This document shows positions 453 through 27,273 of a stretch of 35,769 nt of DNA, in pieces (positions within the stretch are counted from its first letter, which is position 1; each line of letters begins with the position of its first letter). Under the pieces are notes generated by a model. The model ran no database searches. It saw only the letters and a list, made by a program, of their open reading frames with translations, and had not been told where the DNA came from. A program made the translations under genes and the position numbers. The stretch covers positions 1-35,769 of the IMG/VR virus record IMGVR_UViG_3300025896_000084; one strand, given 5' to 3'. The stretch comes from a virus.

Positions 453-3400
453 ATGGTTCAACCCCCAGACAAGCATCACGACCTCCGCACTTACCTCCTA
501 GACCAGGGTATCGAGGAAGCCAAGTACTGCTCTCCTGAAGAGCTGGAGCTGCTCGACACGATGCTCCACGAGATGGCTGAGGACGGCAACAGTTCCACCT
601 ACGACAGAATGATCGAGGAGGACTATTCGCGACCTCCTCCAGACATCCAGGAGTTTGTGGAGAGCAACCAGTACCTTGGTGAGGTGTGCCGAGGCACCGA
701 CGAGGCTCCCGGCTTGTTTCCGAAGTGGCGCGAGGTGCTCTACGAGATGTTCGACGGCTCGTCCAAGTATAAGCAGCTGATTCTGGCTGGTGGGATCGGT
801 CTGGGCAAGTCGGAAATAGCTGGAACTCCTATTCCCGTTGACGGTAAGGGCACGGTCCCGATCGAAAAAGTGCAGGTCGGTGATGTGGTACGTGGCTTGT
901 CTGGGCTGCGCAAGGTCACAGCCACCCACGATGAGGGTGAGCTAGAGACCCTCAGGATTAGGACCAGGCTCAACCACCAGATTGAGTGCGGCTACGAGCG
1001 CCACAGGCTCCTAGTAATGGATTGCGCCGCTCTTACCGAAAAGTGGCAGTTTGTAAACTCGTTTGCTGGGGGCGAGGTAGTCTTGCTTTATCCAGGCAAC
1101 ACCTTCGGCCCTAACGAATTATCTGATCTTGACGCTTTCCTCCTCGGTCTTCAAATAGCTGAAGGTGTGCGCCAGAAGAAGGTCCGTAGGTGCTTTTATT
1201 TGTCGGTGCACCGGGATGAAGCTATCTTCTTAACCGAGACCTTCCATTTCATACACAAAGTGCCGTCTCATGCGAGACCGAACAGCAATCTGCTAAGGGT
1301 TGACAGGTACTCAGACCTACACCGTGAGGTATCACACCAACTCTGCATCGACAAAGTAGTGCCTGACTTCATCAAAGGAGCCACTCGGCGCACTATCTGC
1401 CAGTTCCTGCGTGGTTGTTTCAGCGGAGACGGGACGGCCTTTGCGCAGAGTGTCGGATACTCGACCGCGAGCAGGCAGCTTGCGGTCGATATTCAGGAGC
1501 TACTTCTGCGTCTCGGCATGCTGACCCGATTTGAGGAGCGTGACAGCTACAACGCTGCCAGCGGCAGGCAGGGTGCTGGCTCCAATCAGCTCTGGTTACA
1601 CGGCGAAGTTTCCAAGGCGCGCTTTGTCGCAGAAATCGGCTTCTTTTACCCAGAGAAGCAAGCTGCGGCTATCCTCGCGCTTAACGGGGACAGCCGCCAC
1701 AACGAGCACAAGTACGGCTTCAAGATCCCACGTGCCACCGTCGATGTCCTGATCTCGCAGCAGCCTCCCGGAACAACCGGGAAGAAACACCCTGACTACG
1801 AAAAATCGCCGAGGCGTCTGCTCAAGCGGTTGCGTTCCCAGAAGTGTACTACCAGGCTCCTACGGGAGGTCCTGGCAGCTGGTGGTGTGCTCCCGAAGCT
1901 GCTCCAGCAAGTTGCCATGGGCGAGGTCTTTTTCGACCAAATCGAGTCAGTGGAACGAAACCGGGCTCACTGTTACGACTTATCTGTCGAAACGGTCGAA
2001 GACCCGTCGTTCATCTCGGCTGGCTTTATGAGCCACAACAGCTTCATTGGCTCCATCGTGGTCCTCTACAAGCTGTGCTGTGCCTTGTGCCTGCGTCACC
2101 CGCTGTCCTACTACGGGATGTCCAAGGTGACGTCCATCAACTTCAGCTACTTCTCGATCACGCAGGCCCAGGTCAAGGGTGGTACCTTCGCGGACACCAT
2201 CAACATGCTAACGGAGTCCCCGTTCTTCACGGAGAACATCAAGAATCCGAGCAGCTCCCGCAAGTACTCCAGCCGCAGCATCGGGTTTAGCCGAAACCTG
2301 CGCATTGAAGCTGGTTCCCGAATCTACGAAGCCCTCGGTCGTAACACTCTAGTGGCTCTGGTCGATGAAATCAACTTTCGACTGGAGCGCGACGCAGCCG
2401 TGGCGGCAGCCGATTTGTTCAACGCCATTGAAAAGCGCTATAAGTCCCGTTTCCGTCACACCAAGGATGGCATGATCATCCTGATCTCATCCGCGAAGGC
2501 CGAGAACGACTTCTTGTCCTCCCACATCCGCAAGTCCCGCCACGACCCCACGGTCAAGATCTGCGAGTTTCCATGGTGGGAGGTGGTCGGACCGTGCCGC
2601 ATGAAGTACTCAGGCCAAAAATTCTGGGTGGACATCGGGGACAACATCAGCCCAGCCGCGATCCTGCAGCCAGGCCAGGAGAAGAACCTCGCAGCCAGCC
2701 GCCTCATCCACGTGCCAGAAGAGCACCGGGAAGACTTCGAGGGAGCTGGCGGGATCGACCGTGCCATCCGCGACGTCGCCGGTGTAGCTACGGGACGTGT
2801 TGCCAAGCTGTTCCCGAACATGATGCCGCTCATCAACTGCATCCGGGACGGCCTGCACAACCCGTTCAAGGCCGACGTTCTACCATTGTCTCTGACCTCC
2901 CTGCACCAGTTGGCCGACTGCCTCAAAACCGGCGGTCACGGCAACCAGGCAGGGGAGCAGCTGGTGCAGTTCAGGCATGGCAAGCTGCAGCCTCTACGTC
3001 ACCCGACGATGCCACGCTTCCTGCACATCGACATCAGCTCGGGCGCTCAGGACAACTGCGGGATTGCAATGGTCCACCCGTTTGCCACTTCTAAGGTCGA
3101 GCGCACCTCGATGCACAACCAGATGCGCGAAATGCTGGTGCAGCCTCTGATTGAGATCGACTTCGCGATCGGGCTCAAGCGTGAGACTCCGTCGGACCCG
3201 CTCGACTTCGGCAAGATCCGAGCTTTCATCCTGTGGCTGCGCGCCTGCGGCTTCGACATTCGAAGGATCACCTGCGACTTGCGCTCCATGTCTCAGGAAA
3301 TGCGCAACATCCTCACCAAGATGGGGTTCAGGGCCGAGTACCTGTCGTGCGACAAGACCAAGGCACCCTATGAGTCGCTCCGGATCGCGGTCTTGGAAGG

Positions 3401-3734
3401 ACGCCTCCACACCGGAGATCTGCCCTGCTTCTTGATGGAGATGTCCAATCTGGAGGACACTGAGGACAAGGTTGACCATCCCGCCAACTTCACGGTTGAA
3501 TGGAAGCCAGCGATACCGTTCGGGATGGTCCTAGGTGGTCCGGCATCTAAGGACATCGCGGACGCCGTGGCAGGTGCCTGTTACAACTGCGTGACCGACG
3601 TCGAGGGCATGGTCGGTCTCAGCCTCCCGGATTCTCACACCGAGTACATGGAGAAGCTGCTCACAGCCTTCCCCAACCCGCTCAAAGACACCTTCGAGCT
3701 TCCGCATGAGTCAGACATCCAGGTGTTTGACTAG
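453..3734 (+). CDS. terL: Terminase large subunit with intein (gp17-like)
   Basis: This is the DNA-packaging motor ATPase and nuclease. The 1093-residue precursor splices to about 683 residues, a normal TerL size. Residues 111-119 (LAGGIGLGK) give the Walker A loop up to Lys119; the next extein residue is Ser530 after intein removal, restoring GGIGLGKS. Walker B is at ~632-639 (TLVALVDE), and the ATPase coupling motif at ~674-682 (MIILISSAK). The C-terminal RNase H-like nuclease carries acidic residues in FLHIDIS (~860) and ITCDL. The ATG at 453 is the first start after the terminator; no Shine-Dalgarno is visible. Without splicing the ATPase would be inactive, so packaging depends on the intein. 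Confidence 0.95.
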   Translation: MVQPPDKHHDLRTYLLDQGIEEAKYCSPEELELLDTMLHEMAEDGNSSTYDRMIEEDYSRPPPDIQEFVESNQYLGEVCRGTDEAPGLFPKWREVLYEMFDGSSKYKQLILAGGIGLGKSEIAGTPIPVDGKGTVPIEKVQVGDVVRGLSGLRKVTATHDEGELETLRIRTRLNHQIECGYERHRLLVMDCAALTEKWQFVNSFAGGEVVLLYPGNTFGPNELSDLDAFLLGLQIAEGVRQKKVRRCFYLSVHRDEAIFLTETFHFIHKVPSHARPNSNLLRVDRYSDLHREVSHQLCIDKVVPDFIKGATRRTICQFLRGCFSGDGTAFAQSVGYSTASRQLAVDIQELLLRLGMLTRFEERDSYNAASGRQGAGSNQLWLHGEVSKARFVAEIGFFYPEKQAAAILALNGDSRHNEHKYGFKIPRATVDVLISQQPPGTTGKKHPDYEKSPRRLLKRLRSQKCTTRLLREVLAAGGVLPKLLQQVAMGEVFFDQIESVERNRAHCYDLSVETVEDPSFISAGFMSHNSFIGSIVVLYKLCCALCLRHPLSYYGMSKVTSINFSYFSITQAQVKGGTFADTINMLTESPFFTENIKNPSSSRKYSSRSIGFSRNLRIEAGSRIYEALGRNTLVALVDEINFRLERDAAVAAADLFNAIEKRYKSRFRHTKDGMIILISSAKAENDFLSSHIRKSRHDPTVKICEFPWWEVVGPCRMKYSGQKFWVDIGDNISPAAILQPGQEKNLAASRLIHVPEEHREDFEGAGGIDRAIRDVAGVATGRVAKLFPNMMPLINCIRDGLHNPFKADVLPLSLTSLHQLADCLKTGGHGNQAGEQLVQFRHGKLQPLRHPTMPRFLHIDISSGAQDNCGIAMVHPFATSKVERTSMHNQMREMLVQPLIEIDFAIGLKRETPSDPLDFGKIRAFILWLRACGFDIRRITCDLRSMSQEMRNILTKMGFRAEYLSCDKTKAPYESLRIAVLEGRLHTGDLPCFLMEMSNLEDTEDKVDHPANFTVEWKPAIPFGMVLGGPASKDIADAVAGACYNCVTDVEGMVGLSLPDSHTEYMEKLLTAFPNPLKDTFELPHESDIQVFD
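810..2039 (+). mobile_element. Intein with LAGLIDADG homing endonuclease, in terL
   Basis: In-frame insertion of 410 codons (residues 120-529 of the precursor). The N-terminal splice block starts at Ser120 (SEIAGTPIPVDG, matching the C-x3-GT-x-V pattern but with Ser as first nucleophile), followed by IEKVQVGDVV. The block B His is His184, but the usual Thr three residues earlier is Tyr. Two LAGLIDADG helices are visible: FLLGLQIAEG (229-238) and FLRGCFSGDG (318-327), with acidic Glu237 and Asp326, so the endonuclease may be active. The C-terminal block runs FFDQIESV...HCYDLSVE and ends with His528-Asn529, followed by +1 Ser530. The insertion splits the GK and S of Walker A. Confidence 0.93.
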
Positions 3735-22393: not shown

Positions 22394-22422
22394 TATCTAG
22401 CCTTGAAGTGCTCATCCTGCAA
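22394..22422 (-). promoter_or_regulatory. Minus-strand sigma70-like promoter
   Basis: Read on the minus strand: TTGCAG (22417-22422), 17-bp spacer, TAGATA (22394-22399), with the ATG 13 nt further on at 22380. The box lies within the N-terminus of the divergent endonuclease gene. Confidence 0.45.
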
Positions 22423-23719
22423 CTCCCCGTCTAAGTCGCACAAGTCTGGCAAGTGCTCCGACTGTCGCCGTGATGGTTTCAAGGAAAGGTCACTGGCGAT
22501 CTGGGACGACGCGGACGCCAAGGCTGCATGGGCAAAGTCGTGTACCTTCAAGCCGCGCTCAGCGCTGAACCAGCAGGTCGAGACTCTTCTAACCCGGCTC
22601 AATATTCACTACATCACCGAACACGTCATCGGGCCATGGTCATTCGACGTGTTTATCCCGCACTGTGGCCTCCTGATCGAGTGCCAGGGCGAGTATTGGC
22701 ACACGGTGTCCCGCAAGGAGCGCGCCGACCGGGCCAAGGCCACTTACGTGGAGTCGTACACCAAGCTGCGACTCCTGGAGGTGTGGGAGGTCGAGTTTTA
22801 CAAGCAGGGGAGGCTGGAGTACCTGGTCAAGCGCGCCCTCGGACTCCTGGAAGTGCCTCCGCAGAGCAGCGTTGACTTCACGAAGCTCGACTGCCGGGTG
22901 GTTGATCGCCGCGACGCCAGCCAGCTTTACGGATCATCCCATTACCTTGGATCGTGCCGTGGCCGCTGGCACTTTGGTCTTTATCTGGGCGACCTTTTGA
23001 TTGGCGCTTGTTCGTTCGGTCAGTTTCAGCGTAACGAGCAGACCCTCAAATACGAAGGAGCGTCGGAGCTTACCCGGTTCTGCATCGATTCGGCTTATCA
23101 AGTCAAGAACCTGGGGTCGTGGTTCCTATCACGCTCCCTCAAGCTCATCGGGGGTACCGTCGTAACCTATGCGGACCGCACCCAGGGGCATGACGGAGCG
23201 CTGTACAAAGCCACTAACTTCACATTCAGTCACGAGGTACCAAGCGATTACCACTACGTCGATCCGGGTGGTTGGGTGTTGCATAAAAAGACTGTCTGGA
23301 ACCGGTCGGTGTCCATGAAGATGACCGAGGCCGAGTATGCAGCTAAGCATGAGTTGTCGAAGAAATGGGGAGCTGCCAAGCTGTGCTTCATCTTCACGGG
23401 GACGCCTGCCCGGACGCACAAGAACAAACCGCCAGTGCTGCAGCCGCGCAAGGTAGTCAGCGAGGTTGTCGGGAAGGTGGCTCAGCCCGTCCTTGATGTT
23501 GCCTTGATTCAGCAACTCAAGCTCGGCGGGACCTCTGCGGGAGCCCTGGCAACTCAGTTTAGCGTGTCCAGGGCTATGATCTTCCACACTGTGAAGCTTA
23601 GGCTCGTTGACTGTCACGAACACGGTAAGCTCTGGTCCAAGAAGGACTCCTGCCCGAAATGCCGTGCTGTCCAGGGCTCTAAGGCTGGTGGTAAATGGGT
23701 CAAGGACGCGATGTCTTGA
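22403..23719 (+). CDS. Vsr/EDxHD-type nuclease fused to Mom-like domain
   Basis: 438 residues, starting at TTG 22403; an in-frame TGA at 22391 rules out a longer form. Order: zinc knuckle C3-x2-C6 with C18-x2-C21; nuclease ~55-145 with Glu60, Asp82 (SFDVFIP), Glu93/Gln95, His100 (ECQGEYWH) and Asp109, the pattern of EDxHD/DUF559 nucleases used by phage homing endonucleases; then ~160-290 a GNAT-like Mom domain (GRWHFGLYLGDLLIGACSFG, ELTRF, WFLSRSLK, YADRTQGHDGALYKATNF). A helix-turn-helix-like segment (TSAGALATQFSVSRAMIFH, ~380-398) and a Cys/His cluster end the protein. Probably a free-standing homing endonuclease; the Mom-like part may instead modify adenine. Confidence 0.75.
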   Translation: MKCSSCNSPSKSHKSGKCSDCRRDGFKERSLAIWDDADAKAAWAKSCTFKPRSALNQQVETLLTRLNIHYITEHVIGPWSFDVFIPHCGLLIECQGEYWHTVSRKERADRAKATYVESYTKLRLLEVWEVEFYKQGRLEYLVKRALGLLEVPPQSSVDFTKLDCRVVDRRDASQLYGSSHYLGSCRGRWHFGLYLGDLLIGACSFGQFQRNEQTLKYEGASELTRFCIDSAYQVKNLGSWFLSRSLKLIGGTVVTYADRTQGHDGALYKATNFTFSHEVPSDYHYVDPGGWVLHKKTVWNRSVSMKMTEAEYAAKHELSKKWGAAKLCFIFTGTPARTHKNKPPVLQPRKVVSEVVGKVAQPVLDVALIQQLKLGGTSAGALATQFSVSRAMIFHTVKLRLVDCHEHGKLWSKKDSCPKCRAVQGSKAGGKWVKDAMS

Positions 23720-23726
23720 TACAGAT

Positions 23727-23760
23727 GAGCCGGAGGTGCTCCCGAATTCACCTCCGGCTC
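23727..23760. other. 12-bp perfect inverted repeat
   Basis: GAGCCGGAGGTG (23727-23738) pairs with CACCTCCGGCTC (23749-23760) around a 10-nt loop. It lies 8 bases past the endonuclease stop, in the gap to the convergent capsid gene. No T-run follows in either direction, so it may be an mRNA 3' stabiliser or a factor-dependent terminator instead of an intrinsic one. Confidence 0.7.
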
Positions 23761-23776
23761 GCTGCTTATGGCCCTT

Positions 23777-23807
23777 GGGACCGATCCAACCTAGTTAAGT
23801 CGGTCCC
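23777..23807. other. 8-bp inverted repeat after the capsid gene
   Basis: GGGACCGA (23777-23784) pairs with TCGGTCCC (23800-23807) with a 15-nt loop. It is 20 bases beyond the major capsid stop on the minus strand. It lacks a U-tract, so a 3' end-protecting role for abundant capsid mRNA is more likely than simple termination; inference. Confidence 0.55.
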
Positions 23808-23827
23808 ATGGGAATGTGTTTCACGGC

Positions 23828-25255
23828 TTAGCTGCCGAAGCTGGTCGGCATGTTGCTGATGCGGACCGTCGAGTAGTACTTGTTGTTGATCATCGCCTTG
23901 CCGTAGCTGGAGGCGAAACCGCGACGGCTCATGAAGTCGTCCAGCTCGACCGTTGGGGTCGTGAAGAGCAACAGCCAAGGAGCGAAGACGTAGCCCGTGC
24001 GGACGAATTCGTTGCCCTTGTAGCCGACGAGGGTTTCGGTGACGGGGTAACGGGTGTCGCCGTAGAGGTCGAGACGACCCAGCTTGCCCATTTCGTGCGC
24101 ACCTTCGATCTCGGCGTCGTCGTTCTTCGCTTCGAAACCAGCGAGGGTCTCGACGATGTTGGAAGCCTGCTGGCCGAGCAGAGCCCAGTTCGCACGAGCA
24201 CGGTTGGTGCCACGGGCGATGAAGCTGGAAGCACCGACGAGGGCGTCGATGAAGGACAGCTTGTGTTCCTGGAAGCTGATGTAGCTGCCGGTCGGGATGT
24301 TCGCGGACCAGTTGAAGGTACCAGCGCCAGCCTGCTTGCGGACGTCTTCGATCAGCTGACGGTCCACTTCCCAGTGGAGGTGATTGGTCACCGCTGGAGC
24401 CAGCATCGACTCAGCGTTCACCTTGTGGAGAGCGTCGAGAGCCATTGCGGCCTCACGGGTCCAGCGAGCGCGCAGCTTGCGGGTTTCCGCACGGATCGGG
24501 CGGCTCTGGAGCTCAAGGTCCACCTGCTGGGACTCAGGGTTGAGTTCCTGGTGGTAGTTGTAGCTCACTTCGACCGCCGTGCCATCAACTGGCAGGCCGA
24601 CGTCAGAGATCGACACTTCACCGGTCGCGTAATCGACGGAGCCTTTGGCAACCGAAGCCACGTTGTACATGATGCCGTCGCCGCCATCACGATAGACCGC
24701 CGTGTCGGCGACCAGCTGCAGGGTGCCGGGGATCAGAGGGGTGTAGGCCAGGCTGCCGGAGGTGGCAGAGCTGGACACCGCACCGAGCATTTCGGAGGTG
24801 ACGCGGTCGCCGGAGTCCGTGTAACGGTCAGCGTGGCCGGTCAGCGCATCCCAGATCTTGGAGCCGCGAGGGGTGTTGCCCTTGTCCTTGCCGGTCACGA
24901 AGTTCGCGAAGAAGATCAGACCGGTTGGGCCGTCGAGTGGCTGCACCGTGAAGAGCTTCTGGGCGATCAGGTTTTCCGACATGATCGAGATCATCGGCAT
25001 GGCGTACTTGTCCCAAGTGCCAATGTTGGTGCTCGTGGTGTTTTCCACCATGCCGTTGTTGATGGCATTGCGGTAGTTTTCGAGCATGTTGGCAGCGAAA
25101 GCCTTGGTGTAGTCGTCAGGAAGGCCATCGACCATTTCCTTCCAGCCCTTGGCTTCCATGATGTTGCCTTTGGAACCGACGCCCATGGGGGTTTCGGCGA
25201 GTTTGATGCCTCGAACGAGAGTCTCGACGAGTTTGGAGTTGTCAACGTGTGTCAT
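23828..25255 (-). CDS. Major capsid protein (gp23-like)
   Basis: 475 residues, about the size of T4-type major capsid proteins. Recognisable segments: the N-terminal helical propeptide (MTHVDNSKLVETLVRGIKLAE), SENLIAQKLFTVQPLDGPTG (~95-115), the core ELQSRPIRAETRKLRARWT (~250-268) followed by EAAMALDALHKVNAES, and C-terminal FAPWLLLFTTPTVELDDFMSRRGFASSYGKA (quoted in part), a typical end of gp23-like proteins. Assembly uses the adjacent protease-scaffold gene, which would cleave the propeptide. The leader (CCAAGCACTCACCACCC...) is A/C-rich with no Shine-Dalgarno even though this should be the most expressed protein. Two inverted repeats lie downstream. Confidence 0.95.
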   Translation of the reverse strand: MTHVDNSKLVETLVRGIKLAETPMGVGSKGNIMEAKGWKEMVDGLPDDYTKAFAANMLENYRNAINNGMVENTTSTNIGTWDKYAMPMISIMSENLIAQKLFTVQPLDGPTGLIFFANFVTGKDKGNTPRGSKIWDALTGHADRYTDSGDRVTSEMLGAVSSSATSGSLAYTPLIPGTLQLVADTAVYRDGGDGIMYNVASVAKGSVDYATGEVSISDVGLPVDGTAVEVSYNYHQELNPESQQVDLELQSRPIRAETRKLRARWTREAAMALDALHKVNAESMLAPAVTNHLHWEVDRQLIEDVRKQAGAGTFNWSANIPTGSYISFQEHKLSFIDALVGASSFIARGTNRARANWALLGQQASNIVETLAGFEAKNDDAEIEGAHEMGKLGRLDLYGDTRYPVTETLVGYKGNEFVRTGYVFAPWLLLFTTPTVELDDFMSRRGFASSYGKAMINNKYYSTVRISNMPTSFGS

Positions 25256-25300: not shown

Positions 25301-26305
25301 TTACTTCTTCTTGGGCTGAGCGCGACGAAGGGAACCGAGGAGACTGACCGACTCATTCAAGTCCTCAGCCGGAGGGGCAGGAGGAGCAGGAGGAGCCGGA
25401 GGGGTACCACCGGGTTTCGGGGCGCTCTCATTGAGCTTGGAAGCGGCGGCTTTGACAATGCGGTCCGAAGCTTCTTCAAGCTTGGTGTAGACCTTGATGC
25501 CCTCAAGTTCAGCCTTGTTGGCTTCGTAGAGTTCGGGCTTGATCTGCTTGAACAGCTGACGGCCCATCTCGGTCATGTCCTTGTTGTACTTCGTCGCGAG
25601 CTTCCGAGCGGCCTGTTCGTACAGGTCACCACCTTCACCGCGTTTGCCACGGTTACTTTCCTTGAGAGTCTTGTGTTCCTGGATCAGCGTTTCCGTGGCG
25701 GCGTTGAGGCGCTTGGTGCGGTTTTCGTTGATCTGCAGACGGCGCTGGAGCTTGGCGATGCCACGCTTGGCCTCGGGGAGGGTCGCAGGCTCGGGGATTT
25801 CTTCGAACGGCTCCTCACCGCCAGCTGCGTCATAATCGACGGGATCGGTGGCGACGCCGTCGGCGTTGGCTTCGAGTTCGTCGGCGAGTGCCAGAGCGGC
25901 TTCAGCGTCCACGCCACCTTCAGCGGAGGTGCGGAGCATGTCGGCGGCCTTGATCAGGAGGTCCGCAGTGGCGGAGCCTTCTTCGTTGCCTTCGTCTTCA
26001 CCGCCAGGGGCAGGAGGAGCAGGAGGAGCGCCAGCGCCGGGGGCGGGAGGAGCAGGAGGGGCCGGAGGGGCGTCTTCTTCGTTCTCGTCGAGGCGGGTCG
26101 CGAAAGCGGTGAGGCGAGCGTTGGCGTCTTCGATGATGAGTTTGACATCCGGGTCTTCACGCATCAGGGCAGCAGCCTTGACGCGCATGGTGTCGATGGA
26201 CTCAAGAAGCGCAGCCTTGTCGGAGGTCCTGAGTTTGGTGAAGTCCGTCTGGGCAAGACGGATGGCGTTGGTTTTAAGCTCGCGGGCTTCGATGAGTTTG
26301 CTCAT
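25301..26305 (-). CDS. Possible nested scaffold from internal start
   Basis: An in-frame ATG at 26305 (MSKLIEARELKTNAIRLAQ) would make a 334-residue scaffold-only protein, starting immediately after the Pro/Ala linker of the fusion. The 28 bases before it on the minus strand are A/C-rich (CCAACACCAACGCAAAATACC), like leaders of other genes in this phage. Lambda makes its scaffold Nu3 this way within the protease gene. Whether this start is used is not known. Confidence 0.35.
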   Translation of the reverse strand: MSKLIEARELKTNAIRLAQTDFTKLRTSDKAALLESIDTMRVKAAALMREDPDVKLIIEDANARLTAFATRLDENEEDAPPAPPAPPAPGAGAPPAPPAPGGEDEGNEEGSATADLLIKAADMLRTSAEGGVDAEAALALADELEANADGVATDPVDYDAAGGEEPFEEIPEPATLPEAKRGIAKLQRRLQINENRTKRLNAATETLIQEHKTLKESNRGKRGEGGDLYEQAARKLATKYNKDMTEMGRQLFKQIKPELYEANKAELEGIKVYTKLEEASDRIVKAAASKLNESAPKPGGTPPAPPAPPAPPAEDLNESVSLLGSLRRAQPKKK

Positions 26306-27211
26306 TTCGGTGGTATTTTGCGTTGGTGTTGGGGCGGAGATTGGGGCGGGAACTGGTGCAGGAGGCGTCGGAGCGGTCTCGACGATCTTCTCTTTCGGTT
26401 TGAGAGCTGCGGCAGCTTCAGTGATGCATCCCAGAGCGCTGGAGACTGAATCGAAGGTGCCGAAGTTGAGGGCGTCGTTGCCAGCGAACTTGAGCTTCCC
26501 GTCCTGACCTTCGATCAGAGAGAGTTTGCCGAACGCGCTGGAGACGACCGATACCAGAGTGCGGTTGATCGCGGATTCCTGGATGTCTTCTTCTGGACTT
26601 GGAAGGGTTGGAGCACGACCGGCGGCAACTTCCTGAATGTTCCTTGGGATGGCGCGCTGCACGGATGGCGTGAAGACCACGTCCCACGTTTCGAGCATGA
26701 AGTCCTCGTTGACGTCCAGGAAACCTTCGGCCTGAGTGGTGGTGCCTGAGCCACGGCTGGAGACACCCCAGCGGACACGGGCTTCGATGAGGGACCGCAA
26801 GAGGTTACCCTGCGGCGTCGGCAGGACCTCAAGGGTGCCAAGGATGTCGCCTTCGCGCAGTTCACCCTTCGATTCGGCAATTTCAGACTCGGTGGCAAGC
26901 CAGACCTTGGTTACGACGTGGGAGGCCTCAGCCATCCTGGTCATACCGTCTTCTGGGTGCTCGATCATCCCAAGGACACCGCGCTCGGCGAGCATCTTGG
27001 AGAAGTCACTGCCGGGGGCAAGGTTCTTCTCCCAGAGCTTCTTGCCGTAGCGGCGACCGTTGAGGTTGGTCTCCACATGGTTTTGAAACACGCCAGTCGC
27101 CTGGAAAGTGGTGCGACCGGCTGCTTCGTGCAGCTGAATCGGGCCGTATTGACGGAAGCCGCTCTTTGAGAGGGACTCCTGTACTGTCTGCCATTCACTG
27201 AGTTTAATCAT
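25301..27211 (-). CDS. Prohead protease-scaffold fusion (gp21/gp22-like)
   Basis: 636 residues from ATG 27211 (a TTG extension to 27259 is unlikely). Residues ~40-190 are a herpes/T4-type prohead serine protease: HVETNLNGRRYGKKLWEKN, GMIEHPEDG with His85, EGDILGTLEVL, and RWGVSSRGSG with Ser151/152, then VNEDFMLETWDVVFTPS. A Pro/Ala linker (~275-300) leads to a long helical, acidic C-terminal part (~303-636) with PPAPPAP spacers, resembling the scaffold core; it ends LLGSLRRAQPKKK. In T4 these are separate genes 21 and 22. The protein likely forms the inner core of the prohead and is processed. It is directly upstream of the capsid gene. Confidence 0.8.
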   Translation of the reverse strand: MIKLSEWQTVQESLSKSGFRQYGPIQLHEAAGRTTFQATGVFQNHVETNLNGRRYGKKLWEKNLAPGSDFSKMLAERGVLGMIEHPEDGMTRMAEASHVVTKVWLATESEIAESKGELREGDILGTLEVLPTPQGNLLRSLIEARVRWGVSSRGSGTTTQAEGFLDVNEDFMLETWDVVFTPSVQRAIPRNIQEVAAGRAPTLPSPEEDIQESAINRTLVSVVSSAFGKLSLIEGQDGKLKFAGNDALNFGTFDSVSSALGCITEAAAALKPKEKIVETAPTPPAPVPAPISAPTPTQNTTEMSKLIEARELKTNAIRLAQTDFTKLRTSDKAALLESIDTMRVKAAALMREDPDVKLIIEDANARLTAFATRLDENEEDAPPAPPAPPAPGAGAPPAPPAPGGEDEGNEEGSATADLLIKAADMLRTSAEGGVDAEAALALADELEANADGVATDPVDYDAAGGEEPFEEIPEPATLPEAKRGIAKLQRRLQINENRTKRLNAATETLIQEHKTLKESNRGKRGEGGDLYEQAARKLATKYNKDMTEMGRQLFKQIKPELYEANKAELEGIKVYTKLEEASDRIVKAAASKLNESAPKPGGTPPAPPAPPAPPAEDLNESVSLLGSLRRAQPKKK

Positions 27212-27273
27212 TGCTCGGATACCTATGACGCCCTGACCGGAGACTCGCTCTGAGTGCAACCTGATGCGCTCCG

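What the first reader, a model, noticed from the sequence alone, without database searches (positions are those of the whole stretch)
22403..23719. Homing-type nuclease fused to a Mom-like modification domain
One protein combines a zinc knuckle, an EDxHD/Vsr-type nuclease, a Mom-like GNAT domain and an HTH plus Cys/His end. Mom makes an unusual adenine modification that resists restriction. A nuclease-modifier fusion could be a self-protecting homing element, or a restriction-modification-like weapon against competing phages. It lies between a head operon and the ART-like gene, as homing endonucleases often do.
Basis: partly seen in the sequence, partly recalled or inferred. Interest (0 to 1): 0.65.

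Follow-up and report, generated by a model that had tools for sequence, protein, structure and literature searches.

The report
Homing nuclease fused to DNA-marking enzyme
This phage gene encodes a selfish DNA-cutting enzyme (a homing endonuclease of the Hef family) joined to a domain of the Mom type that in phage Mu chemically marks DNA; the pairing is published, but I find it is a mobile family that keeps the marking domain intact while swapping the cutting domain, which suggests the element may mark its own DNA to survive its own cut.

Summary
ORF 22403-23719 (438 aa) is a Vsr/EDxHD-like nuclease (res ~53-133) followed by a Mom-family GNAT domain (164-316; Pfam Mom E=1e-16; best fold match Mu Mom, 8bv8). 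It belongs to the Hef homing endonuclease family (U5 Hef); nuclease-Mom fusions in jumbo phages were published in 2021 as predicted restriction-modification. The evidence here favours homing. Jumbo phage records carry up to about nine or ten copies. The spot just 3' of the capsid gene gp23, where the window copy sits, holds a Hef-family gene in 9 of 69 gp23 loci; two are empty in close relatives, and other homing nucleases use the same spot. Two new points concern the Mom half. The window's subfamily ("type I") keeps every Mom residue compared, including Mu S124, whereas classical Hefs (U5, Campylobacter) lost two; and Mom stays intact while the nuclease changes from Vsr-like to HNH. At the same gp23 spot, related arms occur on a nuclease joined to a methyltransferase-like domain. 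A 'cut and mark your own copy' homing element is the best reading, but Mom activity is inferred. The C-terminal HTH/Cys end has no detected relatives and is unconfirmed.

The parts
22403..23719 (+). Hef-family homing endonuclease gene with Mom-type GNAT domain (438 aa, TTG start)
22409..22465 (+). N-terminal two-Cys-pair stretch (C3,C6,C18,C21), possible zinc knuckle; not supported by any profile
   Evidence: sequence; AF2 pLDDT mostly under 50
22559..22801 (+). Vsr/EDxHD-like nuclease domain, about res 53-133 (D82, E93-x-Q95, H100, D109, K112)
22892..23350 (+). Mom-family GNAT domain, res 164-316 (H180, Y181, E222, R225, N236, S239 = Mu S124, D258 = Mu D149, Y268)
23528..23716 (+). C-terminal extension, res 376-438, HTH-like stretch then C404/H405/H407/C417/C420; orphan, low-confidence model
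23722..23815 (.). two strong inverted repeats between the convergent hef and gp23 genes (folding -28 and -25 kcal/mol); no T-run, so not called as terminators
23828..25255 (-). major capsid protein gp23, the neighbouring and presumed target gene

Best explanation
It is a free-standing homing endonuclease of the Hef family sitting next to the major capsid gene. Inferred mechanism: DNA-binding arms bring it to a conserved site in or beside gp23; the nuclease cuts copies of that site in a co-infecting phage that lacks the gene; repair from the carrier copies the gene across. The type I Mom domain of the same protein is probably still a working enzyme that marks adenine at or near the bound site, so that carrier DNA is spared even though the insertion lies outside gp23 and may not destroy the target. 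Supported by comparative evidence: family membership, mobility, insertion spot, Mom fold and residues. Inferred: cleavage, the target, Mom activity, protection. I put homing at about 0.85 and an active self-marking Mom domain at about 0.55.
For: Family: tblastn finds 222 phage records, best hits annotated Hef-like homing endonucleases, including U5 Hef between nrdA and nrdB. Mobility: jumbo phage records carry up to nine or ten Mom-bearing copies, e.g. G007 8+1, G005 10. Site: 9 of 69 gp23 loci with room downstream carry a Hef-family gene within about 200 b of the gp23 stop, against 6 such genes elsewhere in 0.8 Mb (naive binomial 3e-10, ignores relatedness); on the tree, gp23-flank copies need 8 changes. 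Empty sites: L136 against L122 (about 1.6 kb against 30 bp, flanks 81-84% identical) and L134 against L116; L112-L114 hold a GIY-YIG gene at the same spot. Caulobacter phage Cr30 has the window's convergent hef-gp23 arrangement, and T4 segD lies antisense between genes 23 and 24 (PMC2988022). Mom: all 48 type I sequences keep H180, Y181, R225, D258, Y268; S239 is S/T in all; 6 of 6 stand-alone Moms agree; S124A is the inactive mutant crystallised in 8bv8. dN/dS of the Mom region 0.06-0.07 in two close pairs. Six HNH-Mom proteins nest in the Vsr-type clade with the Mom residues intact. At the gp23 spot L093 joins arms 48% identical (137 aa) to those of L123 Hef-Mom to a methyltransferase-like domain.
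Against: No activity is shown for this protein or, as far as I know, for any type I member. The window phage has no near relative in the collections, so its own empty site was not seen. The first E of EDxHD is absent. Type II Hefs keep most Mom residues except Y181 and N236, and U5 Hef (shown to be active, from memory of Sandegren 2005) also has N for D258, so the domain can serve without full Mom chemistry. The methyltransferase-like domain rests on motifs, weak profile hits and a low-confidence model.
Confidence: 0.55

Rival explanations
1. It is a Hef-type homing endonuclease in which the GNAT domain has lost chemistry and only helps to bind DNA or hold the fold.
For: Classical Hefs have the same domain with Y181 and N236 replaced (G at 236 in 34 of 34), and U5 and phiP4-3 have N for D258.
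Against: The window's type I group keeps every Mom residue compared, groups with stand-alone Moms apart from type II (support 100/99), and keeps them even when the nuclease is replaced by HNH.
Confidence: 0.3
2. It is a restriction-modification-like weapon: Mom protects the whole phage genome and the nuclease degrades host or rival DNA (reading of Iyer et al. 2021, PMC7824862).
For: Published prediction for jumbo phage Mom-REase fusions; the two activities in one chain fit such a design.
Against: Up to nine or ten copies per genome with different arms; gene-adjacent insertion with empty sites; PADLOC match only to homing endonuclease; close relatives in cellular genomes only in three contigs of one MAG.
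Confidence: 0.12
3. It is a stable phage gene for DNA modification, with a relic nuclease.
For: G+C (57.6%) and GC3 (0.727) lie within the range of the neighbours, so it is not a compositional newcomer.
Against: Nuclease residues are kept; most gp23 relatives lack any Hef-family gene at this place.
Confidence: 0.03

Closest known systems
Hef of phage U5 (Sandegren et al. 2005; AY262133) and Hef-like genes of Campylobacter phages
   Same: Same order: arms, Vsr-like nuclease, GNAT domain; free-standing; next to essential genes; many copies in Campylobacter phages
   Different: Those are type II: Y181 to L/I, N236 to G (D258 to N in U5). The window is type I with the Mom signature intact; 23-26% identity in alignment
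Mom of phage Mu (PF25680; structure 8bv8)
   Same: GNAT fold, the equivalents of H58, Y59, E108, R111, N121, S124, D149, Y159, N163
   Different: Mom is a stand-alone modifier without a nuclease; identity about 22%
I-Bth0305I and the EDxHD homing endonucleases (3r3p)
   Same: Nuclease domain alignable over res 57-127 (E=0.0017)
   Different: First E absent in the window; a Mom domain is added
Jumbo phage Mom-REase fusions of Iyer et al. 2021
   Same: Evidently the same fusion
   Different: Read there as restriction-modification; here linked to Hef homing genes, with site, copy-number and nuclease-swap evidence
T4 segD
   Same: Homing-type gene antisense to gp23, directly downstream of it (PMC2988022)
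   Different: GIY-YIG nuclease, not described there as carrying a modification domain

Membership tests
Hef-type phage homing endonucleases | nuclease plus GNAT domain in one chain, homologous along both | tested here: met
Hef-type phage homing endonucleases | mobile: presence/absence at the same site in relatives, many copies | tested here: met
   met for the family; not seen for the window copy itself, whose phage has no near relative
Hef-type phage homing endonucleases | site-specific double-strand cut near its own gene and transfer in mixed infection | not testable with these tools
   needs bench work
EDxHD homing nucleases | catalytic E, D, H, D residues | tested here: not met
   D82, H100, D109 present but the first E is N56; called 'Vsr/EDxHD-like' only
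Mom family (PF25680) | profile score above curated cut-off | tested here: met
   61.5 against 27.1 bits
Mom family (PF25680) | residue equivalent to Mu S124 and the conserved H, Y, R, N, D, Y | tested here: met
   S239 etc.
Mom family (PF25680) | transfers an acyl-derived group to adenine N6 in DNA | not testable with these tools
   no assay
Restriction-modification system | modification and cleavage of the same site, protecting the carrier genome | not testable with these tools
   both domains present; specificity unknown
Restriction-modification system | recognised by a defence-system model | tested here: not met
   PADLOC gives only 'homing endonuclease', E=2e-6

The most novel reading that the evidence does not exclude
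Type I Hef genes are 'cut-and-mark' homing elements: one set of DNA-binding arms directs both a nuclease and an acyl-type adenine modifier to the same target, so the element cuts naive genomes and immunises its own. The cutter is exchangeable (Vsr-like, HNH) and the marker exists in two unrelated chemistries (Mom or a methyltransferase), a selfish-gene counterpart of fused restriction-modification enzymes.
Probability: 0.4. Interest if true: 0.8.

Novelty: new variant of a known kind. Interest (0 to 1): 0.58.

Why it matters
As I recall Sandegren et al. 2005 (paper not held), free-standing phage homing endonucleases such as Hef cut genomes that already carry them, which leaves open how the carrier is spared. 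A modification domain fused to the cutter would be a direct answer and can be tested with two point mutants. It would also reinterpret the published jumbo phage 'Mom-REase' fusions as homing elements and give a family in which one modification domain is combined with different cutters.

Tried and rejected
Near relatives of the window phage by gp23, by the neighbouring gene and by the ATPase gene: none useful (the one relative of the neighbouring gene, L033, carries no Hef). Homologues of the C-terminal arm: none. Composition as a sign of recent insertion: not informative. Intrinsic terminators and sigma-70 promoters around the gene: no promoter-like site, few terminator-like sites (3 against 1.3 expected, none at the gene end), and the two hairpins lack a T-run. 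Papers naming a Mom-homing link: none found. The Sandegren 2005 paper and a Mom paper requested by DOI are not held, so statements on U5 Hef activity rest on memory and on PMC2988022. The class label 'HNHorOther' of the tree was settled by reading the sequences.

Full report
WHAT IS THERE. The window is a 35,769-base virus record with a T4-type head module on the minus strand: head protease 25301-27259 and major capsid protein gp23 23828-25255. The ORF 22403-23719 runs towards gp23 on the plus strand and ends 109 bases before the gp23 stop. Residues 164-316 match Pfam Mom (E=1e-16). The AF2 model has a confident GNAT region whose best PDB match is Mu Mom, 8bv8. Residues 57-127 match a mobile intron protein, 3r3p, and D82, E93, H100, D109, K112 are conserved in 20 relatives. 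The first E of EDxHD is N56 here, so I write 'Vsr/EDxHD-like'. The ends of the protein are poorly modelled, and no relative of the C-terminal end was found.

WHICH FAMILY. tblastn in phage records finds 222 records; the best are annotated Hef-like homing endonucleases, including U5 Hef itself between nrdA and nrdB. Hef-like genes in named phages lie beside gp23 (Cr30, Los1), uvsX (phiP4-3), tail fibre (Vi II-E1) and tail sheath (Campylobacter phages). Iyer et al. [quoted passage not shown] I found no paper that joins this to Hef.

MOBILITY. In 22 of 23 related phage records an alignment profile finds copies, often many (the records were chosen because they hold at least one, except one): G007 (341 kb) has nine Mom-bearing copies and G005 ten, with some fragments and a copy with an in-frame TAG. 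N-terminal arms differ: zinc-type ends with short W-containing repeats, or HTH arrays.

THE gp23 SPOT. I fetched 80 gp23 loci without regard to Hef and added four from named phages. Of 69 with at least 1.5 kb downstream, nine carry a Hef-family gene starting within about 200 bases after gp23; six other Hef-family hits occur in the same 0.8 Mb. The naive binomial value is 3e-10; relatedness makes this an overstatement, but the tree needs 8 changes of the label 'at gp23'. Two empty sites: L136 against L122 (gp23 76% identical, next gene 92%; about 1.6 kb against 30 bp) and L134 against L116 (next gene 75%). Closest gp23 relatives of L134 (L112-L114) have a GIY-YIG gene there, and L077 an HNH gene. 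T4 segD sits antisense at the same place (PMC2988022). The window and Cr30 share that antisense arrangement. The window's own empty site was not seen, because no near relative was found.

TWO SUBFAMILIES. Over 82 fused Mom-like domains, a type I group (48, with the window) keeps H180, Y181, R225, D258 and Y268 in all, N236 in 47, and S/T at 239, the position of Mu S124; six stand-alone Moms agree. A type II group (34, with U5, Campylobacter, PBS1, Cr30) has G at 236 in all and mostly I/L at 181 (Y in 10), while keeping R225 and Y268. The split is supported in the tree (100/99), with the stand-alone Moms on the type I side. This grouping was partly defined on the residues it is used to describe, but the tree was built from the whole domain. 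dN/dS of the Mom region is 0.06-0.07 in the two close pairs where it could be estimated well.

SWAPPED CUTTERS AND MARKERS. Six type I proteins have two HNH-like units in place of the Vsr-like nuclease and nest within the Vsr-type clade (Pfam HNH hits in two of them, the rest by reading). In L082 and L086 a type II domain is followed by a TnsA-like nuclease. At the gp23 spot L087/L089, L088, L093, L096, L097 and (second gene) L126 join a nuclease-type N-terminus to a domain with DPxxGxGGR-like and (T/S)SPP(Y/F) motifs; its profile meets N4-cytosine and RNA methyltransferases weakly, and a low-confidence model meets SAM methyltransferases. L093 shares HTH arms with L123, a Hef-Mom at the same spot (48% over 137 aa). 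The common logic of these fusions is a cutter, a modifier and one set of arms.

READING. Homing is well supported by comparison. That Mom is active and protects the carrier is the best explanation of its strict conservation and of the parallel methyltransferase-like fusions, but it is an inference; a binding-only role remains possible, as type II may show. A restriction system proper is less likely given copy number and distribution. Statements on U5 Hef cutting its own genome come from memory of Sandegren et al. 2005.

Noticed in passing
window 453-3734: Terminase large subunit ORF (1093 aa) carries a LAGLIDADG intein-like insert that appears to interrupt the Walker A motif (GIGLGKS): a second selfish element in the window.
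   Followed up: partly
L093:7627-9468, L097:2445-4634, L089:2150-3736, L088:7502-9091, L096:7537-9060, L126:9414-11459: Nuclease-type proteins fused to a methyltransferase-like domain directly downstream of gp23 (second gene in L126).
   Followed up: partly
L186:1340-2803, L182:2208-3860, L179:1040-2743, L185:2187-3743, L189:2245-3825, L190:4715-6346: HNH-type nuclease plus intact Mom domain in jumbo phages.
   Followed up: partly
L133:2822-4312: HAD phosphatase-like domain fused to a Mom domain upstream of gp23; no nuclease seen.
   Followed up: no
L070:3890-6407: Bacillus phage SP-15 gp23 is annotated as split around an endonuclease I-type ORF, another invasion of the capsid gene.
   Followed up: no
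L216, L217, L218: The only close type I relatives in the cellular genome collection are three contigs of one Lokiarchaeota MAG, perhaps binned virus contigs.
   Followed up: no
L161:2540-3394 (G004, also G010): A Hef copy with an in-frame TAG and altered nuclease residues but intact Mom residues: a decaying copy or recoded stop.
   Followed up: no
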